This document shows, in pieces, positions 1-62,000 of a DNA stretch of 64,000 nucleotides. A program made the position numbers and the translations under genes. The stretch is from Glandiceps talaboti (lineage: Eukaryota; Hemichordata; Enteropneusta; Spengelidae). Below the pieces are notes generated by a model that saw nothing but the letters and a program-made list of their open reading frames with translations, was not told the DNA's origin and ran no database searches. Numbering within the stretch: the stretch's first letter is position 1; each line of letters opens with the position of its first letter. The stretch covers positions 25,842,676-25,906,675 of the forward strand of contig NC_135550.1 of the NCBI RefSeq assembly GCF_964340395.1, read 5' to 3'.

Positions 1-961
1 ATTAAACATATTGTAACTATCGTCCTTACCACAACTAGAAAATAGACGGATCAGAGCAGATTTGCTGGAAGTGTATGAACCTTTCCATGGGCATACTCGC
101 GTTGATCCAGTTGTGTTTTTCAAAGTATCTACTTCGACAACAAGAGGACACAGTTTGAAATTATTTAAGGACAGATCCAGATTGGATATACCTAAATATT
201 TTTCAGTCAACGTGTCGTAGACATTTGGAACTATTGAAAGGGCTATATTGCTACTTCATCAGTTAATCACTTTAAAGCGTGTATTGATAACCACCTCAGA
301 ACAGTAAGGGGTCTTTAAAAGCCTCAATGGCTTCCTACCCCACATAAATTCACGGTACAATTAGTTATGTATATCAAAAGAAAGGTATGCCATGTTAAAT
401 CAGTAATGAAATGATTTTGAATTACGTGGAATGCATTAAAATGATGACAGATTTATGTGACATTCTCACCTCTTGACCAACCAGACCTGTACCAGCTGCG
501 CAATCCAAAATTCTAGCATCTTTGTTTGTCATAAGTTTGGATAATCCCTCGGCAGCGTACCTCGGGGCGTTCCATCTCAAAGATTCAAGATCCTAGGTAA
601 AATAGGTAGGATATCACGGTCAAAACCCAAGTAGCTTAAACCATAGACCCTCCACCATAGACCCTCCTGGTGGAGGGTCTATGCTTAAACCTAGTAGATC
701 CTACAAGAATCTGAACAACTCCCTCCCCTCATTTTTGTACACGATAAGAGCATGAATAAAATATCATAAATGGTCAATATTTATTAATTATAAATGTATA
801 TCGAAGTACGTAATGATATTTCACTTGTGCATGAAAAGTAAATCTCAGCTCTTTACCTTGTCGAATTCTTCACTCCACTTATCATAGAAAGTTTTGACTT
901 CCTGGGCTGTCATTCCTGGATTACGAATGTCTGCTAATCTCTCAGCGCTAAAATCATCCAT
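1..961 (-). CDS. METTL27: METTL27-like methyltransferase, copy A (partial, first two coding exons)
   Basis: Second copy of the METTL27 (WBSCR27)-type class I SAM-dependent methyltransferase, cut by the left edge of the window. Coding exons are 857-961 and 470-592 (minus strand). They give 76 codons that differ from copy B at four positions (residues 6, 19, 33 and one Arg/Lys change in exon 2). The SAM-binding motif I, ILDCAAGTGLVG, is complete. Exon 3 should lie about 11 bases beyond base 1, because base 1 corresponds to about base 8963 of copy B. The intron after exon 2 carries a LINE fragment and the intron between exons 1 and 2 carries a 40-bp hairpin; copy B has neither. Whether this copy is complete cannot be seen. 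The substrate of the family is unknown to me. Confidence 0.8.
31..357 (+). mobile_element. LINE (non-LTR retrotransposon) 3' coding-end fragment
   Basis: On the plus strand bases 54 onward translate to RRIRADLLEVYEPFHGH, then TRGHSLKLFKDRSRLD and, after a one-base frame shift, RVVDIWN, and then SVNHFKACIDNHL. This is the signature end of the reverse-transcriptase ORF in CR1/L2/Jockey-like LINEs (TRGHSxKLFK, FSxRVVxxWNSLP, SVNxFKxRLDxH). It is a dead 5'-truncated piece with a frameshift and an in-frame stop (WNY followed by TGA). It sits in intron 2 of METTL27 copy A, antisense to the gene. The corresponding place in copy B (about 8985-9005) is empty, so it arrived after the duplication or was lost from B. 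Confidence 0.75.
470..592 (-). CDS. METTL27: METTL27-like copy A, coding exon 2 (SAM motif I)
   Basis: Acceptor TTTTACCTAG, 41 codons, donor GAG/GTGAGA, phase 0 to 0. Encodes RWNAPRYAAEGLSKL followed by the glycine-rich motif I (DCAAGTG) that binds S-adenosylmethionine in class I methyltransferases. Confidence 0.85.
634..691. mobile_element. 40-bp hairpin insertion with 9-bp target-site duplication
   Basis: The 9-mer GCTTAAACC stands at 634-642 and again at 683-691. Between them, 643-682 is a 40-base hairpin with perfect 15-base arms, ATAGACCCTCCACCA (643-657) and its reverse complement (668-682), and a 10-base loop. The homologous intron in METTL27 copy B (about 9275-9290) has a single GCTTAAACC and no hairpin, so this is an insertion. 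A 9-bp duplication is typical of Mutator-like transposons. Confidence 0.7.
857..961 (-). CDS. METTL27: METTL27-like copy A, coding exon 1
   Basis: Begins ATG GAT GAT (start codon at 961-959) and ends AAG before donor GTAAAG; 35 codons, phase 0. The start is chosen because copy B has the same one. The frame stays open further upstream, but an acceptor-like run ending CTTCAAAG lies just before the ATG, so the 5' UTR is probably spliced. The segment FYDKWSEEFDK matches the N-terminal FYDRW region of human METTL27. Confidence 0.8.
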
Positions 962-1281
962 ACTTTGAAGAAAGAAAATAATAAAAATAGTGCTAATTGC
1001 GTTGTAACACAACTGTAAATTTGTGATAATTAAAAAAACACGTTTATCCACATGCTAATCCATCGTTACTGTTACCTTTGCAATGTGCATCATCATTGTA
1101 GTATTGGTATGTGCAGTTTCTTGGTTGCTGGGTGACTTTATGTAATATTTGTTGAATATTAAAAATCAACTTGCCTAACTACCACTGTTGTTTATCTTTG
1201 TCACATACATCATCATTTGGCTGTTGTTATGGGCATGGTCTTGTTGCTGAGTATACATATATTCATTTTCTGGGTATTTAC
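962..1281. repeat. Upstream flank of METTL27 copy A, part of the segmental duplication
   Basis: Non-coding sequence that matches 9545-9874 upstream of copy B with scattered substitutions and small indels. It holds the presumed promoter or 5' UTR of the gene. I see no further coding exon. Confidence 0.6.
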
Positions 1282-1425
1282 TAGTCTAGCTGCTAGACCT
1301 CGGATGTTCTTCCGATATAATACGACACACGATCGAACATCGCTATCCAGGATGGCAAGCCCTCACTGCGAACTTCGTTCGCTTATCGTATCGGAAGAAA
1401 GTCCGAACGTCTAGCAGCAAGACTA
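1282..1425. mobile_element. 144-bp Mutator-like foldback MITE
   Basis: Terminal inverted repeats of about 36 bases: the left begins TAGTCTAGCTGCTAGAC, and the right, read in reverse complement, begins TAGTCTTGCTGCTAGAC; both end near TTCTTCCGATA. The element is flanked by the 9-bp direct repeat GGTATTTAC (1273-1281 and 1426-1434). The duplicated locus at 9865-9885 has the uninterrupted empty site. No ORF of its own; non-autonomous. Confidence 0.85.
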
Positions 1426-1434
1426 GGTATTTAC

Positions 1435-2410
1435 CCTCTTGCCTACCAACTATTTTGTTATCTTTGCAATGTGGGCAACTATTTGGTTGTTGCTATGAAA
1501 ACATGGGATCATTACTTGCATGTTTATTGGAAAGGCGTGTTGTGTGAAAAGATATTTTTTTTAGGTTTTAAGACACCCTTGATGAAGTTATGATAGTTCC
1601 AGCCATACTCTAATATTCCTCTTTGGCATGTAAATTTGTTGCCCACTTCGGGAAAAGGATAGCCTACTAACTATTGATAGATCATAAAGTAATGACGTAA
1701 TGACGGAACCGGGACCCAGCTATCAGTCTCTGGTATGTCAGATGGCTTCACCTTTTTCCAAGATTACCGAAATCTTCTAATTTAAACCTAAAACTTCGAA
1801 ATACGATATTTTGGATCATGACATTAGTAGCGTGGGGCCTGGTTCTTAGTGATGAGCACTCGTATTTGACCACGTTTGTACTTACCGTATCAGATTGTAT
1901 CAGTATACAATGACTGCCCTTTATACAGACAAACACTCTCCGAACACAAGGGCTTGATATTGGCCATATTTATTTTATTTTATTTTTAAATTGTATTGTT
2001 TCCTTTTTTTGCTTTTTAAAAATATCTTCCGATAAAATGGAAGATATTTGATATTTGATATTTGATATTTGTTCGGGCAAGCCCTCACTGCGAACTTCGT
2101 TGTTTATCGGATCGGAAGAAAGCCCGAACATCTAGCAGCAAGACTATCCGTGAAAGTGTCTTGGGTCAAATTCAAAGCGCGTCAACGCACACGATGTCCA
2201 ATTATCAATCTTACCAGTAGGCATGTATGTTTCGCTCTTTCAAGTGCGGTGGTCAAAAATAAACAAAACTGTTATGCGTACTACCACAGACAAGTGTCAG
2301 TAATTTCATTGTAAGTTTCTTACTTGTCTGTGGTACTACACTCAAAGTTACATTGCCAATGCATGCAGTGAGTTCAGTCACTTGTGAACTAATGTTCCAT
2401 TCCGGGATGG
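1435..2410. other. Intergenic, no gene seen
   Basis: To about 1560 the sequence still belongs to the segmental duplication. Beyond that I see no supported coding exon, only the partial MITE at 2071-2146 and a 25-base segment at 1883-1907 that recurs with one mismatch at 12332-12356. Confidence 0.5.
2071..2146. mobile_element. Partial second copy of the 144-bp foldback MITE
   Basis: Shares the right half of the element at 1282-1425: the segment starting GCAAGCCCTCACTGCGAAC and the terminal repeat ending AGCAAGACTA. The left TIR is missing and is replaced by a GATATTT heptamer repeat at about 2048-2070. Confidence 0.7.
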
Positions 2411-2412
2411 TG

Positions 2413-2804
2413 ATATTGAACACATATTGCCTGGCCATGAGGCTATAGCACCCGTTTATTACACCCGAGGGACTGTGTGTGAGTTACCAGAATCACATGC
2501 TATTTCCCGAGGCCAAAGGCCGAGGGAAATAGCATGTGATTCTGGTAACTCACGAGGGGGTAATGAACGGGTGCTATAGCCCGAATATAGGCCAGGCAAT
2601 ATGTGTTTTATAATATACCTCATGCTGTGAACTCGCGGTGGCAGACAACATCATCGGAAGCTGCCATTTTGACCTGCTGTGCCTGCTGTGAACTCGCGGT
2701 GGTCACGTGACCATGTAATAGTTGATGGAACTATTCCCCTAGGGAAATAGTCATTCACGTGACTGATTCTAGCGAATCATGGCACAGCATTATCACTAGG
2801 TATA
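2413..2804. mobile_element. Long-hairpin element, copy 1
   Basis: About 392 bp sharing near-identical sequence with 61602-61999. The first half is a long hairpin: arms of about 90 bases (2421-2514 and 2518-2605) meeting at GGCC-AAA-GGCC. The second half is an unpaired tail containing CTGTGAACTCGCGGTGG twice and ending near ACTAGGTATA. No ORF and no recognised family. The body is much richer in CG than its surroundings. Confidence 0.8.
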
Positions 2805-4464
2805 ATCTAGTCTAGGATGATCATAATGACGTTATTATAGGTATTTACGATAATACTAAAAAGTGCCGTAACGGTGACTTATGCACCGCCGGGATGGGGG
2901 TTGGGAGGGGGTGTCCTCCTTCCCTAGGTTTAAAGTTTTTTTTGAAGTTGTACTTGCTTCAGAGTGTTTTTTATGGCCTTTAGTAGTCTTTGATCACTAA
3001 AATAGCAAATGAAAATTTGGCAAACTATTATGAAACACTGAGACTATGAAGTTAAGTCTTATAATAAATTTTAATAGTATATATTGTATGACTTTGTAGT
3101 CTGACAGGTTTTATAGATAGCGTGAATATAATTATAATTTCCTGTAAAGCAAACCAGTTAAAATAGCCTGGAAAGGTTTTGTGAGATCATTTTGTTTGTC
3201 CTTCACGATATTCCTCTCATTGATTTCTTTCTGGAAGAAAGATACTCTTTGCAGCATTTCTTTATTTATAGCTGTTTTATGTTATTCTGTTTCCACATAT
3301 ATTAGACATGCTGAATGGGACAGACATAGTGTCCCATTTCATGTTTTGGATTATTTCATTTACATGACTGTATGTATTTTTGTCAAATGATGTATCCATT
3401 CATGGGAAAACTTGGCCTCCGATCTATGTTTACAACACATACAGACAGTTGTCCTTGAGATTGAGGATCATTACATTACAGAAATAATAGTTGCCAATGT
3501 TAGATTTGTTTATGAATCAGGAACTAGACTAGCCGACACTAGTCCTGCTTGCATGCGGAGTAATCCGGGACTCGATTCTGACAATTGTCCCTCCTCCTCA
3601 AGTCAGTAATACAGACTCGTGCACCGTCATGGAAGCAGGACTAAGCCGACACTTGATTGGATTCGTCAGGCGAACTACATGTATCCCTAGCACATGACAG
3701 CGTAAGCCGGTCGTGACCCCGATGGAATCGACCTTGTTGCTCAATCAAGTCTCCCCTGTATGACTACCTTATAGTATACATAGACTTTCGTGTAGGGTCT
3801 ATGCAGACTGTGTATAAAGGTCTTTGATGATTCGATTCTACACTACAGCACAAACAAATACTCACACTAACCTCAGACTCTGCTCAGACTATATAGAGGG
3901 ACTGTGGTTGGGTGGATTGTTCTGCTAAATTACGCCTTGCCTGTCAAAAATTCAGACATTTCCTAACTCCAACTTAATTACAGAGCCTTCAAGACCTAAG
4001 AAGTGTTCAGAGGTACCTCAATTGCCGTCAAAATCGGCAAATGTAGCACCCCAATTTCCGTCCGGCAAATGTGGTATGGTAATGCATGCAGCGGACTGTA
4101 CTCTGACATCTCGCTCACGTTTTCAGCGTGATCTCCTTTATTTGGGTTAACGTTACAGGAAGTTGTATGTGGTGTTTGCTTCCCGCTAAACATCAGAACG
4201 AAAAAAAGGGCATAACAACAAGAAAAAGCTCTCAAAATCACAGCAAACGCTACAATCAGCTAGGGCCAGAGATACGTCTAACGGAAGTGATAATAGAGAG
4301 AACAATGACGAAATGATGCTGTTGAAATGATGAAACTAACAATATGGCAAAGTCATTAAGACTGCTTTACATTAAAACTACTTTTACATGTAATTATATG
4401 ATGTGACATGTTCAGAACAAAGTACAATAATTACTCTGAATTACAAAGAGAGCATGAAATGACC
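2805..4464. other. Intergenic spacer, no gene seen apart from the MITE at 3540
   Basis: Non-coding by inspection on both strands; open frames are short and have no family resemblance. Contains a short imperfect inverted repeat at about 3778-3803 (CATAGAC and GTCTATG). Confidence 0.4.
3540..3643. mobile_element. 104-bp foldback MITE with 9-bp target-site duplication
   Basis: Ends are TAGTCCTGCTTGCATG on the left and, in reverse complement, TAGTCCTGCTTCCATG on the right (15 of 16 match). The 9-mer AGCCGACAC flanks it on both sides (3531-3539 and 3644-3652). The TAGTC-TGCT start resembles the TIR of the 144-bp element at 1282. Confidence 0.7.
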
Positions 4465-6769: not shown

Positions 6770-9544
6770 GTTTGCGTGCGTGTGTGTGTGTATCGTACTG
6801 TAATAGACTGACACCCCCACCCATCTCTGACATTACATATTAGCGAGGTAGATTCTTATAATCATTCATGCGACTGTTTCAACATGGTGCAAGCTTTACA
6901 CATTGTACCCTGAATATGTCTTACCTCTTCTAACGATTCTTACCCACTCGGTAAGGCATGAGTCATCAAGGTGGTTATCTAAGAATGCACCACTACATAC
7001 TATTGCATCATATGTGTCTGAAAAAGACGATGACAGGAAAAGACCGTCTTTAGAATCTGAACATGTTGGACATGTTCGTGCTACTTTAATGTTTAAAAGA
7101 AAATTGTGACTAGGAGAATAATCTGATTTAAAGTACACGCTTTATATACGTTAATAATATATGTTATTACTAAATTCATTGGTTATATTTCAAGTTTTAC
7201 ACACTTGGGCAATGGTATTTCCATAGTAGCAAATTGTATGTTTTCTACCCATAAATTAATTTTTAGGGCATCAATATCCCTATCATATCATATGTGTTAC
7301 AAAACTGGTTAGTGTTGGATAGGTATATTGATGTATTTTTACCTTCCGTCTTATCAAGTAATTTGCATAATTTACGATTTTCCGACATTTCTCTTCGAAT
7401 TGCATATAATATGGTACATATAATAACTCCATATCAATGTGTAGGTGAGTTTAGTATGAAGGTTGGTTAAGTTGTACTAGCTATACAGTTTGCATTCTAT
7501 ATAGTCATGATATGATTCGCTTATCAACCTAACACATGTAGTATCTTGTAATCTGACCATACACAAGAGGCTGACCATATTCAGACTGTTGTCTGCTTAG
7601 TATGTATTGTAAGTAATGTTCTAGAATTTTACAACATCTCCATCAGGTCATTTAACAATCATCAAGTCGTCATTTTGGAATCTGAAATTCAGTCTTTTAT
7701 GTTGTTTTTCCTCATTTCTTGACAATAAAGCTCAATGATAGCCTCAGAGACATTCTGATGTATCAATAACGGGACGCCACTAAAGGTATTTCAAGATCAA
7801 ACCTGTCACATAAAACGTCCTCTAATAGTCATAAAATAAGATTGACGTACATTTTTGTATTTTATTCGGTTAGTGCTTACAGTTTTACATAAATCTACTC
7901 AAAGAATGCCACAAAAATAAACTAAACTAACTATTCTTGTAGCTCAGACAGGTTAAGACATCACCTCTCCATGTGACGATGATATCCTGAACAGTATTAT
8001 AAATTCATTACATCCCTTTCATATCATACCGTTATAAAGATCAAACTATACATTCGTAGAATGACAAGTGGACCCTATTTTTCATGTCAATAACTAGATT
8101 TGCTTATACATAAAGATATACAAGTGAATATATGAATACATCAGCTGGTATGTTCATTACCTTTTCAAACTCAAATATTGTAGTTAAGACATAGCGTTAG
8201 TTTCGTTTGGGACAGTCTGTTTATTTAACCTCTTCAGTGAAATTTTATATCTTTATATAATTACATTTTTGCATATTTCTATCATTACTTTATCAAGTAT
8301 ATAATAAGATATTTCTTTGGACTGAAAGAAAATATAGAGCGAATGTGTCCATTAAATAGCACATGGTTATGTTTGTTACAGAATTAGTTCTGAAAACAAA
8401 GCATCATAAAATTGAATAACAATATAATGTTCAATATGAACTGTAGACTGTAAAATCACCTGATGCAATCAGATTCATATCATTCACCAAAGGCATGACT
8501 GGCCCTCTCGATATTGATAATAACAAAAGTGCACTTGTCCTATAAAGAGTATTTATATTGCTATCGTAATGATTAATTTTCATAATCAATGATTTTCGGT
8601 AATTAGGCAATATCATAAATATGCAAGCTTCATATTTCATATAGTTTGGTGTAATTAATTTGCCAATTAAGAGGTATATCATACATGACAAGTCAGAATT
8701 TTGCATTCTAACAGTTACTGTGTGTAGGAAAATAAATACAAGGTTTTATATGAAAGAAAACATTCACTTTACATGTGTATTTTTAAAAAAAGATTTAAGT
8801 ATTGTTTTATTACCTTCATTTACTCCTTCTATTGGTTCAGTTCCAATTTTCGCACAAATTAATTTCTTATATATACCCTTTTCTTGCGCTTGATCTAAGA
8901 TTGCCTGTGACAAATCTAGGGCATCGATATCTTTATACCCTAAACGATGCAACTGCAATGAACCAGAATTTATTGTAACTATCGTCCTTATCACTATCAA
9001 ATTTAGTTATGTATATCGAAAGAAAGGTATGCAATGTTAAATCAGTAATCAAATGATTGTGAATTACATGGAATGCATTAAAATGATGACATATTTATGT
9101 GACATTCTCACCTCTTGACCAACCAGACCTGTACCAGCTGCGCAATCCAAAATTTTAGCATCTTTGTTTGTCATAAGTTTGGATAATCCCTCGGCAGCGT
9201 ACCTCGGGGCGTTCCATCTCAAAGATTCAAGATCCTAGGTAAAATAGGTAGGATATCACGGTCAAAACCCAAGTAGCTTAAACCTAGTAGATCCTACAAG
9301 AATTTGAACAACTCCCTACCCTCATTTTGTACAAGATAAGAGCATGAATATAATATCATACATGGTCAATATTTATTAATTATAAATGTATACGTATGCT
9401 ATTTCACTTGTGCATGACAAGTAAATCTCAGCTCTTTACCTTGTCGTATTCTTCACTCCACTTATCATAGAAAGTTTTGACTTCCTGGACTGTCATTCCT
9501 GGATTACGAATGTCTGCTAATCTCTCAGTGCTAAAATCATCCAT
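6078..9544 (-). CDS. METTL27: METTL27-like methyltransferase, copy B (complete, five coding exons)
   Basis: Class I SAM-dependent methyltransferase of the METTL27/WBSCR27 type; the substrate is not known to me. Exons (minus strand): 9440-9544, 9112-9234, 8814-8952, 6925-7017, 6078-6244. All junctions are GT/AG and phases agree, giving 627 bases or 208 residues, somewhat shorter than human METTL27 (about 245). Domain order: N-terminal FYDKW segment, motif I LDCAAGTG (about residues 65-72), the acidic loop after strand 2 (DIDALDLS, about 84-91), TYDAIVCSGAF (motif IV region) and DGLICIG (strand 5 region), ending YFVAYRVV. It lies upstream of copy A in the same orientation, so the two are a tandem pair. 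Intron 4 carries diverged repeats and a trinucleotide microsatellite. Confidence 0.88.
6360..6565. repeat. Diverged tandem repeat in METTL27-B intron 4
   Basis: Three to four imperfect copies of a unit of about 60-70 bases around ACAGTACCTTCCAGCACCGT. No coding evidence. Confidence 0.5.
6704..6792. repeat. (GTTATT)/(GTT)n/(TG)n compound microsatellite
   Basis: Trinucleotide run followed by a TG run, inside METTL27-B intron 4. Confidence 0.95.
6925..7017 (-). CDS. METTL27: METTL27-like copy B, coding exon 4
   Basis: Acceptor CTTTTTCAG, donor AGAG/GTAAGA. Encodes TYDAIVCSGAFLDNH and TEWVRIVRR, matching the TFDAVLIVGAL region of the family. Confidence 0.85.
7018..8813. other. METTL27-B intron 3, nothing further seen
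   Basis: AT-rich intron with no supported exon, repeat or RNA gene on either strand. Confidence 0.4.
8814..8952 (-). CDS. METTL27: METTL27-like copy B, coding exon 3
   Basis: Acceptor TTCATTGCAG, donor GAAG/GTAATA. Encodes LHRLGYKDIDALDLSQAIL and then the GIYKKLICAKIGTEPI segment, which matches the GLYQxLxLCxLGxEPL region of human METTL27. 46 codons plus one base. Confidence 0.88.
9112..9234 (-). CDS. METTL27: METTL27-like copy B, coding exon 2
   Basis: Acceptor CTAG and donor GAG/GTGAGA, 41 codons with motif I LDCAAGTGLVG. One residue differs from copy A. Confidence 0.88.
9440..9544 (-). CDS. METTL27: METTL27-like copy B, coding exon 1
   Basis: Start ATG at 9544-9542; 35 codons; donor AAG/GTAAAG; phase 0. 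Three residues differ from copy A. Confidence 0.85.
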
Positions 9545-10283
9545 ACTTTGAAGAAAGAAAATAATAAAAATAGTGCTAATTGCGTTGTAACACAACTGCA
9601 AAGTTTGTGATAATTAAAAAAAACACTCGTTTATCCACATGCTAATCCATCCTTGCTGTTACCTAAGTTTGCAATGTGTAACATCATTTTAGTATTGGTA
9701 TGTGGAGTTTCTTGGTTGCTGGGTGACTTTATGTAATATTTGTTGAATATTAAAAATCAACTTGCCTACCACTGTTCCTATCTATGTCATAAATATACAT
9801 CGTCATTTGCAATTGGCTGTTGTTATGGGCATGGTCTTGTTGCTAAGTATAGGTATACTAGTATTCACTTTCTGGGTATTTATCCACTTGCCTATCAACC
9901 TTTTGTATGTTATCTTTGCAAAATGTGCGCAACCATTTGGTTGTTACTGTGAAAACATGGGATCATTACTTGCATGTTACATTGGAAAGGCGTGCGGTGT
10001 GAAAAGGTATTCTTAAATTTTCCTAGGTTTTACGACACCGTTGATTAACTTATGATTGTTCCAACAACACGGACGTCCTTAAATTCGCCGAGAGAGCTTC
10101 CGTTACTACATTTGTAAGTCTTGTTTTTTCAGTATCTTACATTTCGATTATTTTTACCGACTCTTCAGAACTGTACTTGGAAACTCGTGTTTTAATTTTC
10201 TGAACATAGGATTTTGTCAATGTTACATAATAGATCGCCAGGTTCACATTTATAGTCGGTCATACAGCTGTAACCGGCTATTA

Positions 10284-11596: not shown

Positions 11597-11707
11597 ATCT
11601 AGGTCAAGACTGTCATTATTACGTACTCAATGTATCCCGTTACTCTCAGCAATCAGGAATGTAAATGGAGTACATTGAGTACGTAATACGGCCAGTCCTA
11701 GACTATT
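11597..11707. mobile_element. Small foldback element
   Basis: Perfect 17-base arms ATTACGTACTCAATGTA (11618-11634) and its reverse complement (11671-11687), with looser pairing outward to TAATCTAGG and CCTAGACTATTA. It starts 16 bases beyond the Harbinger-like element. No clear target-site duplication. Confidence 0.5.
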
Positions 11708-13120
11708 AAGTACATGTGTAATGACATGAATAGAATAAAGTACAGCCTGTAGTACAGGGAGCTGTGTTGTGACAATAATAGAGTCATAATTACTGGATGT
11801 ACTGATTACATTATTCAGTTTAAGGATTGTGGCTGTTCCACCATTCCTTTCTGTTCCTGATGTAACTACTGATGTAATGTTCTTGTCATCTTATTTGGGA
11901 TTGAAATAAACAGATCATTTATTTATGCAATGACTTCGACTGTTGTTTATTTTTTTTCATTCCATTTTTTAGTTGTTCGTTTTGCTCTTTAGTTTTGGTC
12001 TTTGACTATCCTGAAATTTACTGACAACCTGGTAGACTCAAACTACAAGAGCTAGTCAGGGCATTTGTATCAATTATGTATGCATAAACTACACATATTG
12101 GTAATGTGGATGTTTGTTTAGCACTTTTCCAGGGTATACGTAACTAAAGGAAATGTAAACAGTCGAAACAAGTGACACAATGAACTACAAAACAAATTAA
12201 AAGTGGGTTCAACAGGGTTGAATGTGTTGAAATAATCATTAAACAAATCCATCATTTGGGGGGGGGGGGTATGTGTGTGCAATTGGCCCAGCACGTATGT
12301 TCTATAGAAATAGTACAGTGCATGTAGCATGTACCGTATCAGATTGAATCAGTATATACCCCTTTCCTACTTTTGTTGTACCTTGGAGTAATTATACAGT
12401 ATAATTACTCCAAGGTCGTACGTACACATAGGGGCTTCTTTAAACTGGTAGGAATATATAGTCAAAAGGTTGTTATATTTAGTCTGTAGACAAGGAAAAC
12501 AACAATCTATGAAATATTACACGCCCCTGTGCACGTACATACCTGTATGATAGTGTCCCCTTTCCTGTGTCCTGATAAACGAAGTAGCAGAGGAAACCCT
12601 GGAATCCAGAATGCAACTGACGACTTCTGTTGTTCGTAGAAAAAACAAAAACCACTATTGGTCAAACATGGAGGTCGAATTTACCTCCAGACTTTACCTC
12701 CAAGTCAAGTCACGTTTTTTTTTTATCAGTACGGACATTCATATGCAAATAGCTGTCTATTTATACAAGATCCGATCTGAGCATGAGCATGCATGCATGT
12801 ACAAGATCCGATCTGAGCATGTATGTACATACGGGCCGATGAAAAGTGGTAGAGTTGACTTCTCAGACAGACGTCAGAGGCCTCGAGGCCTCAGACAGGC
12901 GTCAGAGGCCTCTTTTACAGAGGTCGCGCACAGAGCTCAGACCCTAGATTTCGCCCAAATGAGTCATTTTACAGTCTGAACCGATCCCCCGATGTATCAT
13001 ATTTACATGGCAGATATTTGATCGTGCCTCAAAGTGGACTGCTTGACTAAATGCTTTATAACTTTAAGATAGCATCATACTAAAGTAGCGACTACACACG
13101 GTAAATATATTGAAAAGGGA
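11708..13120. other. Repeat-bearing intergenic spacer, no gene seen
   Basis: Contains a G-run near 12258, a perfect hairpin at 12381-12415, a duplicated CAAGATCCGATCTGAGCATG (12767 and 12801) and a short direct repeat around CGTCAGAGGCCTC (12870-12920). The 122-codon open frame at 12611-12979 runs through these repeats and is not supported as a gene. Confidence 0.4.
12381..12415. repeat. Perfect 16-bp hairpin with 3-bp loop
   Basis: Arms CCTTGGAGTAATTATA (12381-12396) and the exact reverse complement (12400-12415) around CAG. No TSD found. Confidence 0.85.
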
Positions 13121-61200: not shown

Positions 61201-62000
61201 ATCACATATAACATATCAAATAAATAAATGGCATAAAAATAATAACTGAGAAATGAACATAATGAAGTGGAAAAATTTATGGTATTATTAATTGAAGAAC
61301 TCTACACTACTTCTATTTACTGTTAAGTTTCCAATTTCATGGCTGTAATAGCTGACATTTATCTTTCTACATCCTGTGAATGACATACATTACATTAGAA
61401 CATTAATTATACATGTACTAGTTTCAATTATTTTTCTTTCCTTTATCATTATGATCGTTAAAGCAGCTTATTATTTTGCTATGGCAAGACACAGAATGGC
61501 CTTAGCACTAGGAGTTAATATAATGTACACTTTTTTAATTGAGAAGACTTTAAGTTGAACATATATCACATTTAAGAATTTAAACAGACCATTTTTTATA
61601 TATATTGAACACATATTGCCTGGCCATGAGGGCTATAGCACCCGTTTATTACACCCAAGGGACTGTGAGTTACCAGAATCACATGCTATTTCCCGAGGCC
61701 AAAGGCCGAGGGAAATAGCATGTGATTCTGGTAACTCACAGTCACGAGGGGGTAATGGATGGGTGCTATAGCCCGAATATAGGCCAGGCAATATGTGTTT
61801 CATAATATACCTCATGCTGTGAACTCGCGGTGGCAGACGACATCGTCAGAAGCTGCCATTTTGAGCTGCTGTGAACGCGCGGTGGTCATGTGACCATGTA
61901 AAAGTTGATGGAACTATTTCCCTAGGGAAATAGTCATTCTATTTTCCTATCACGTGACTGATTCTAGCGAATCGTGGCACAGCATTATCACTAGGTATAT

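What the first reader, a model, noticed from the sequence alone, without database searches (positions are those of the whole stretch)
634..691. A 40-bp perfect hairpin that behaves as a mobile element
Copy A of the METTL27 duplication holds 40 bases (643-682) made only of two 15-base perfect arms and a 10-base loop, flanked by the 9-mer GCTTAAACC. Copy B has one GCTTAAACC and no hairpin. A 9-bp duplication with a matching empty site is strong evidence for transposase-type insertion, yet the element is barely larger than two transposase binding sites. This would be among the smallest TIR elements I know of.
Basis: partly seen in the sequence, partly recalled or inferred. Interest (0 to 1): 0.7.

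Follow-up and report, generated by a model that had tools for sequence, protein, structure and literature searches.

The report
Excision scar of a P-type transposon
The tiny perfect hairpin is most likely not a mobile element itself but the scar left when a much larger P-element-type jumping gene cut itself out and the cell joined the broken ends, and this genome carries many such scars.

Summary
The hairpin, its direct repeats and the empty site in copy B are real. The genome has 166 matches to the paired-arm pattern and 2,126 copies of one 15-nt arm, reversed control 0. In 42 copies read, the flanking repeat is 7 bp, not 9: exact in 29, at most one mismatch in 39; the unit is CATAG...CTATG (window 642-683) between CTTAAAC repeats. 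Centres mostly differ (34 of 42), and arm conservation fades after 17-18 nt. A parent-type element was found: 9,179 bp, P-element-type transposase domain, exact 7-bp duplication and a 37-bp perfect TIR starting like the scars, one base apart. Five 1.6-kb elements share that TIR, one with exactly the scar's version. Scars thus keep 17-18 nt of a 37-nt TIR, as Drosophila P excision does (17-nt 3' tails; PMC2895639 Table 1). Excision itself is inferred: no allele series was available. Of 2,126 exact arms only 26 reach 28 nt.

The parts
642..683 (.). 42-bp excision footprint: 16 nt of the left TIR end, 10-nt filler, 16 nt of the right TIR end
   Evidence: same boundaries in the other genome copies
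642..657 (+). left TIR remnant CATAGACCCTCCACCA
   Evidence: first 16 nt of the 37-bp TIR of the C12 long element
658..667 (+). filler TAGACCCTCC, a repeat of part of the arm (templated-insertion type)
668..683 (-). right TIR remnant
635..641 (+). 7-bp target-site duplication CTTAAAC, left copy
684..690 (+). 7-bp target-site duplication CTTAAAC, right copy
9277..9283 (+). matching empty site in copy B (single CTTAAAC)
3779..3803 (.). possible old scar of the CCTACACC subfamily (CATAGACTTTCGTGTAGGGTCTATG); no clear duplication
   Evidence: weak
2278..2339 (.). 48-bp hairpin with other ends (CACAGACAAGT) and exact 7-bp duplication GTACTAC: possible scar of another P-type family
   Evidence: inferred, parent not sought

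Best explanation
A P-superfamily DNA transposon with a TIR of about 37 bp beginning CATAGACCCT(C/A)CACC(A/C)ACAGGATACGCAAC inserted at 635-641 and duplicated 7 bp (shown by comparison with other copies and the empty site). Its transposase later cut it out, cleaving one strand at the element/flank junction and the other 17-18 nt inside the TIR (inferred from where arms stop, by analogy with Drosophila P). The chromosome was left with two 17-18-nt 3' tails, which cellular end joining trimmed by 1-2 nt, joined, and in this case filled with a copy of part of the arm (inferred). The result is duplication - TIR end - filler - TIR end - duplication, which looks like a perfect hairpin because the two TIR ends are inverted copies. 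The dispersed hairpins and most single arms in the genome are read as scars of the same kind.
For: 166 matches of the paired-arm pattern and 2,126 single 15-nt arms genome-wide, reversed control 0. Flush 7-bp repeat exact in 29 of 42 and within one mismatch in 39 of 42, other lengths at that boundary 0; 7 of 7 further copies exact. Element at C24:18349274-18358452 with exact 7-bp duplication GTTACAT, 37 perfect bp of TIR and a PF21787 transposase domain (E 4.9e-24; solved P transposase 6p5a at E 0.001). Five further convergent pairs 1,576-1,600 bp long with 32-37-bp perfect TIRs, exact 7-bp duplication in 4 of 5 (one mismatch in the fifth), one with exactly the scar's TIR. Retention of the searched arm against the long TIR in a set of 75 (3 of them later judged artefacts): 15:12, 16:17, 17:17, 18:19, 19:7, 20:1, 22:1, 32:1. 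Genome-wide, exact arms fall from 2,126 (15 nt) to 1,489 (17 nt) to 26 (28 nt, CCTCCACC type). 34 of 42 centres distinct. Of 40 arms without a full partner arm, 28 reach a repeat of their own 7-bp flank (at most one mismatch) within 19-77 nt. Same anatomy as Drosophila P excision junctions.
Against: Excision was not observed; no allele or relative with the long element at a scar site was available. Fillers are no more like their own outside flanks than like other loci's flanks (166 against 169 +/- 6.5, 35 fillers, some of them mutated arms); templating shows only when arms and flanks are pooled (128 against 84 +/- 3.4, 17 fillers). Of 90 loci examined strictly, 19 gave no clear duplication, and 3 of the 75 scars taken were artefacts. 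12 of 40 unpaired arms had no clear second end in the roughly 255 bp read; two of these were followed 7-8 kb without finding one. The transposase-bearing copy differs from the main scar family at one TIR base. The search needed 14-15 nt of arm, so shorter retention on that arm is invisible, and a 28-nt exact match is lost to mutation more easily than a 15-nt one. Position 18 is also partly conserved (C in 27 of 48), so 17 or 18 nt is open. No THAP domain in the 721-aa frame. A step between 17 and 28 nt could not be placed more finely because those searches did not complete.
Confidence: 0.9

Rival explanations
1. The 32-76-bp hairpin is itself the mobile unit, moved in trans by a transposase.
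For: Many copies with perfect 7-bp duplications; a transposase with nearly matching ends exists; some identical short forms recur at different sites (one sequence 5 times among 75).
Against: 63 distinct sequences among 72 clean scars; 16 of 75 have one arm trimmed to 3-8 nt yet keep a duplication; the TIR of long copies is 32-37 bp, so the hairpin lacks half of it; with a 17-nt stagger at each end a 32-bp unit would come apart into unpaired strands (inference).
Confidence: 0.05
2. Abortive insertion: transposon ends are joined to the target, the body is lost before gap repair, and the two 17-nt tails are joined, without a stage of stable residence.
For: Gives the same footprint; would explain why so few exact arms (26 of 2,126) still continue into the long TIR.
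Against: No precedent known to me (recalled, not searched); ordinary insertion then excision needs no new step; long resident copies do exist.
Confidence: 0.1
3. Ordinary internal deletions of resident elements that keep random amounts of both ends.
For: Some derivatives with longer retained ends exist (107-bp copy in L147, 54-bp scar in L049).
Against: Retention mostly stops at 17-18 nt of a 37-nt TIR: 26 of 2,126 exact arms reach 28 nt.
Confidence: 0.04
4. Copy B lost a hairpin present in the ancestor by slippage between the repeats, so the empty site is secondary. (Compatible with the scar reading.)
For: Short repeats round a hairpin are prone to deletion (general knowledge; no call).
Against: Does not remove the need for an insertion with duplication; no outgroup was available to test it.
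Confidence: 0.15

Closest known systems
Drosophila P element excision junctions repaired by end joining (Chan et al. 2010, PMC2895639; passages and section 7 with Table 1 read)
   Same: Duplication - up to 17 nt of TIR - short deletion or filler - up to 17 nt of TIR - duplication; one-arm-trimmed forms and recurrent small-deletion joins occur in both
   Different: 8-bp duplication there; laboratory events at one locus, against a standing record dispersed in a genome here; insertions more frequent here (30 of 42, against 15 of the 40 Table 1 isolates that keep one arm of 15 nt or more)
Galileo (P superfamily, Drosophila; PMC2775673 and PMC4168063, passages read)
   Same: 7-bp duplication with a GT...AC consensus and a palindromic target motif
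   Different: Galileo has very long TIRs; the target here is GTYWRAC-like with T at -3 and A at +3 and the TIR is 32-37 bp
MITEs and bacterial REPIN-type mini elements (recalled; a REPIN paper seen only in a search listing)
   Same: Short, palindromic, dispersed, dependent on a transposase encoded elsewhere
   Different: Those are mobile units with conserved interiors; here the centres look like individual repair outcomes

Membership tests
P superfamily transposon (the parent element) | Transposase with P-type RNase H catalytic domain | tested here: met
   PF21787 over its cut-off, 90 bits in the 721-aa frame of the C24 copy; 13 matches in the genome, 0 in the tool's 14 control genomes (their kinds not shown); solved P transposase 6p5a at E 0.001
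P superfamily transposon (the parent element) | 7-8-bp target duplication, palindromic target with GT...AC core | tested here: met
   7 bp; G 19, T 28 of 39 at positions 1-2 and A 23, C 22 of 39 at 6-7; T 27 at -3, A 29 at +3; long copies
P superfamily transposon (the parent element) | TIR of about 30 bp starting with CA | tested here: met
   32-37 bp perfect, CATAGACC... in 6 pairs; that CA is a superfamily trait is recalled
P superfamily transposon (the parent element) | N-terminal THAP DNA-binding domain and GTP-binding insertion domain | tested here: inconclusive
   No such match in the 721-aa and 716-aa frames; other exons not examined
P-type excision footprint | Target duplication kept on both sides | tested here: met
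   62 of 72 clean scars exact, 10 with one mismatch; 19 of 90 loci gave none by the strict rule
P-type excision footprint | At most about 17 nt of each TIR kept although the TIR is longer | tested here: met
   Retention table and genome counts; 17 versus 18 not resolved; a few keep more
P-type excision footprint | Individual junctions with small deletions or templated fillers | tested here: met
   34 of 42 centres distinct, fillers resemble arms and flanks pooled; not their outside flanks alone
P-type excision footprint | Direct demonstration of excision from the same site | not testable with these tools
   Needs alleles or relatives carrying the intact element at a scar site
   63 distinct sequences among 72 clean scars

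The most novel reading that the evidence does not exclude
In this lineage P-type transposons behave as hit-and-run passengers: nearly every insertion is soon excised and sealed by end joining, perhaps even before the insertion is completed, so that of 2,126 exact arms only 26 still continue into a long TIR; several unrelated P-type families do the same (ends CACAGACAAGT, CATGGATGT, CTCAGACC), and some scars then grow into minisatellites.
Probability: 0.3. Interest if true: 0.8.

Novelty: new variant of a known kind. Interest (0 to 1): 0.6.

Why it matters
A repeat that looks like the smallest transposon is better read as a fossil record of natural double-strand-break repairs, probably more than a thousand of them, at a break of known geometry. 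It suggests that the unusual 17-nt staggered cut of the P element is shared by a P relative with 7-bp duplications in another lineage, it offers a large natural set of germline end-joining outcomes, and it warns that repeat annotation may list excision footprints as element families.

Tried and rejected
Rejected: 9-bp duplication (3 of 42 exact against 29 of 42 for 7 bp); mobile 32-bp unit; random internal deletion. Led nowhere: viral contigs gave 1 stretch and genome contigs 6 with the hairpin pattern, in viral or prokaryote records, not followed; own-flank templating test negative; two unpaired arms were followed 7-8 kb inward and no second end was found (one lies about 4.5 kb from a frame that looks like a CDK20-type kinase exon, recognised by eye); the nearly identical transposase regions on C14 and C19 showed no TIR with a 7-8-bp duplication in 8 kb; Pfam on two window frames gave nothing. 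Not answered: counts of arms reaching 19 nt and 21 nt (asked once), a tandem-arm pattern (asked once) and the hairpin count for the CATGGATGTA family (asked once). The host species was not identified.

Full report
Observation. The 40-bp hairpin at 643-682, the flanking GCTTAAACC and the single GCTTAAACC in copy B are in the sequence as described. An alignment of 1-1700 with 8801-10200 puts a 49-bp gap exactly at the hairpin plus one repeat. The arms run one base further on each side (642-683). The loop repeats part of the arm. I did not test the METTL27 label.

Copies. The window lies in a 590-Mb genome of 47 contigs that is held unnamed. The pattern of two 14-nt arms with up to 60 nt between them matches 166 times (palindromic, so the same on each strand; nested matches count apart), and the reversed control gives 0. 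One 15-nt arm alone gives 1,015 plus 1,111 matches, control 0. That would be up to about 1,960 places, but some are amplified copies: L074 and L109 are identical, L078 and L112 85% identical with L073 alike by eye, L072 lies in repeated units of about 2.46 kb, and L067 and L101 are tandem arrays built on scar-like units. I take the number of independent scars to be probably more than a thousand; this is an estimate, not a count.

Duplication length. Of 42 hairpins (40 fetched regions from the first listed places, plus the window), 29 have an exact 7-bp repeat flush with CATAG...CTATG and 39 have at most one mismatch; other lengths at that boundary give 0, and the 9-bp reading at ATAG...CTAT is exact in 3 and within one mismatch in 15. 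Seven further copies were all exact. The window's 9 bp is thus best read as a 7-bp duplication with a chance match on each side. The target is palindromic: in 39 copies G 19 and T 28 at positions 1-2, A 23 and C 22 at positions 6-7, T 27 at -3 and A 29 at +3.

Not a mobile mini-element. The centres differ: 34 distinct of 42. I fetched 40 arms that had no full partner nearby, the first such ones in the C1 listing: 28 (27 without the identical pair) reach a repeat of their own 7-bp flank, at most one mismatch, within 19-77 nt, with the other arm trimmed, mutated or missing; the other 12 are mutated, unclear, or show only a distant or overlapping chance match in the roughly 255 bp read. None of the 40 is among the ends that continue into the long TIR (one search lists one such end on C1, elsewhere). 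A strict pass over 90 loci gave 75 unique scars and left out 19 loci; on rechecking, 3 of the 75 had a misplaced or internal boundary (one entry each of L030, L035 and L051), leaving 72 clean scars at 69 loci, 62 with an exact duplication and 63 distinct sequences. In copies of 36 bp or more, information falls from 0.94 bits at position 17 and 0.38 at 18 to 0.03-0.16 at 19-22; positions 2-15 are fixed by the search pattern.

The parent type. A P-element-type RNase H domain (PF21787) rings 13 times in this genome and in none of the tool's 14 control genomes. One copy on C24 lies in an element of 9,179 bp (18349274-18358452) with the exact duplication GTTACAT and 37 identical bases at its inverted ends, CATAGACCCTACACCAACAGGATACGCAACTGCGGCA. 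Its 721-aa frame matches only PF21787 in Pfam and, weakly, the solved Drosophila P transposase (E 0.001); I did not establish that the gene is complete or active. A 28-nt stretch of this end occurs 40 times, 26 of the scar's CCTCCACC type and 14 of the CCTACACC type, and forms five more convergent pairs of 1,576-1,600 bp, presumably non-autonomous from their length; their interiors were not read. Those five have perfect TIRs of 32-37 bp, four with an exact 7-bp duplication and one with a mismatch; the C12 pair has exactly the scar's TIR. Of ten single ends read, one is a 107-bp derivative with a near-exact duplication and nine showed no second duplication in about 200 bp. So the TIR is about twice as long as what hairpins keep.

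Mechanism. Drosophila P transposase cuts 17 nt inside its 31-bp TIR and leaves 17-nt 3' tails (passages of PMC7776569; PMC2895639). Table 1 of the latter lists the repaired junctions: duplication, up to 17 nt, small deletion, microhomology or filler, up to 17 nt, duplication; it also lists 20 isolates joined at long microhomologies that lose most of the tails, a class my arm search could not have seen. The present set has the same form. Retained length of the searched arm against the long TIR in the 75 (3 artefacts included) is 15:12, 16:17, 17:17, 18:19, 19:7, 20:1, 22:1, 32:1; in the genome 2,126 exact arms reach 15 nt, 1,489 reach 17 and 26 reach 28. Fillers of 5 nt or more resemble the arms and flanks pooled (summed longest match 128 against 84 +/- 3.4 in 200 shuffles, 17 fillers), as expected of polymerase-theta-type joining, but not their own outside flanks (166 against 169 +/- 6.5 in 500 permutations, 35 fillers, some of them mutated arms). 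The window's filler TAGACCCTCC is an arm copy. The excision step itself is inferred; no allele series was available.

Generality. In 190,907 bases (the window, 60 kb next to it, and seven stretches of 9.5-9.9 kb chosen round known scars, so not a fair sample) short hairpins with a maximal direct repeat number 8 for 7 bp and 0-3 for each other length from 5 to 12; two shuffled controls gave 0 for 7 bp. Three of the 8 have other ends (window 2278-2339, L066 6987-7028, L071 4626-4680), and L066 6305-6362 is a further one of the second family. These may be scars of other P-type families; I did not trace them to parents.

Known or new. Footprints of this kind are known from Drosophila experiments. 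I saw no paper describing them as a standing repeat class in a genome, in the listings of searches of an open-licence library; several of these listings were cut, and other wordings were not tried. The element itself appears to be a member of the P superfamily in an unidentified eukaryote; the scale of the scar record is the part that looks new. On rechecking, my odds for the main reading went from 0.92 to 0.90 because of the artefacts found and the unclear unpaired arms.

Noticed in passing
window 1273-1434: 144-bp inverted-repeat element (TAGTCTAGCTGC...) with 9-bp duplication GGTATTTAC in copy A and an empty site in copy B; a related piece ends near 2146. Looks like a Mutator-type MITE (family name recalled).
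   Followed up: partly
window 3531-3652: 104-bp inverted-repeat element (TAGTCCTGCTTG...) with 9-bp duplication AGCCGACAC.
   Followed up: no
window 2479-2553 and 61661-61743: Two copies of a fold-back element with 30- and 34-bp perfect arms and a 15-base loop.
   Followed up: no
window 12380-12416 and 11617-11688: Two more perfect hairpins (18-bp arms, loops of 1 and 36 bases) without an evident target duplication.
   Followed up: no
L066 6305-6362 and 6987-7028: Two hairpins of 44 and 28 bp with ends CATGGATGT and exact 7-bp duplications GTGCAAT and GTCCAAT: possible scars of a second P-type family.
   Followed up: partly
L067 about 1-800; L101: Tandem arrays whose unit contains the scar arm (CATAGACCCTCCAYTCACTA units; duplication-plus-scar units), as if scars had seeded minisatellites.
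   Followed up: no
L072 1518 and 3976: The same scar with the same flanks at a spacing of 2,458 bp in a repeated stretch, one copy with a further 7-bp deletion of the hairpin centre.
   Followed up: partly
L128 / L129 (C14 24.54 Mb, C19 16.47 Mb): Two regions with P-type transposase frames, 99.5-99.8% identical over about 7.8 kb: recent duplication or transposition; no ends found.
   Followed up: partly
G000 C2:2987712-2988492: Convergent arms 781 bp apart, one of them continuing into the long TIR: possibly another short element of the family.
   Followed up: no
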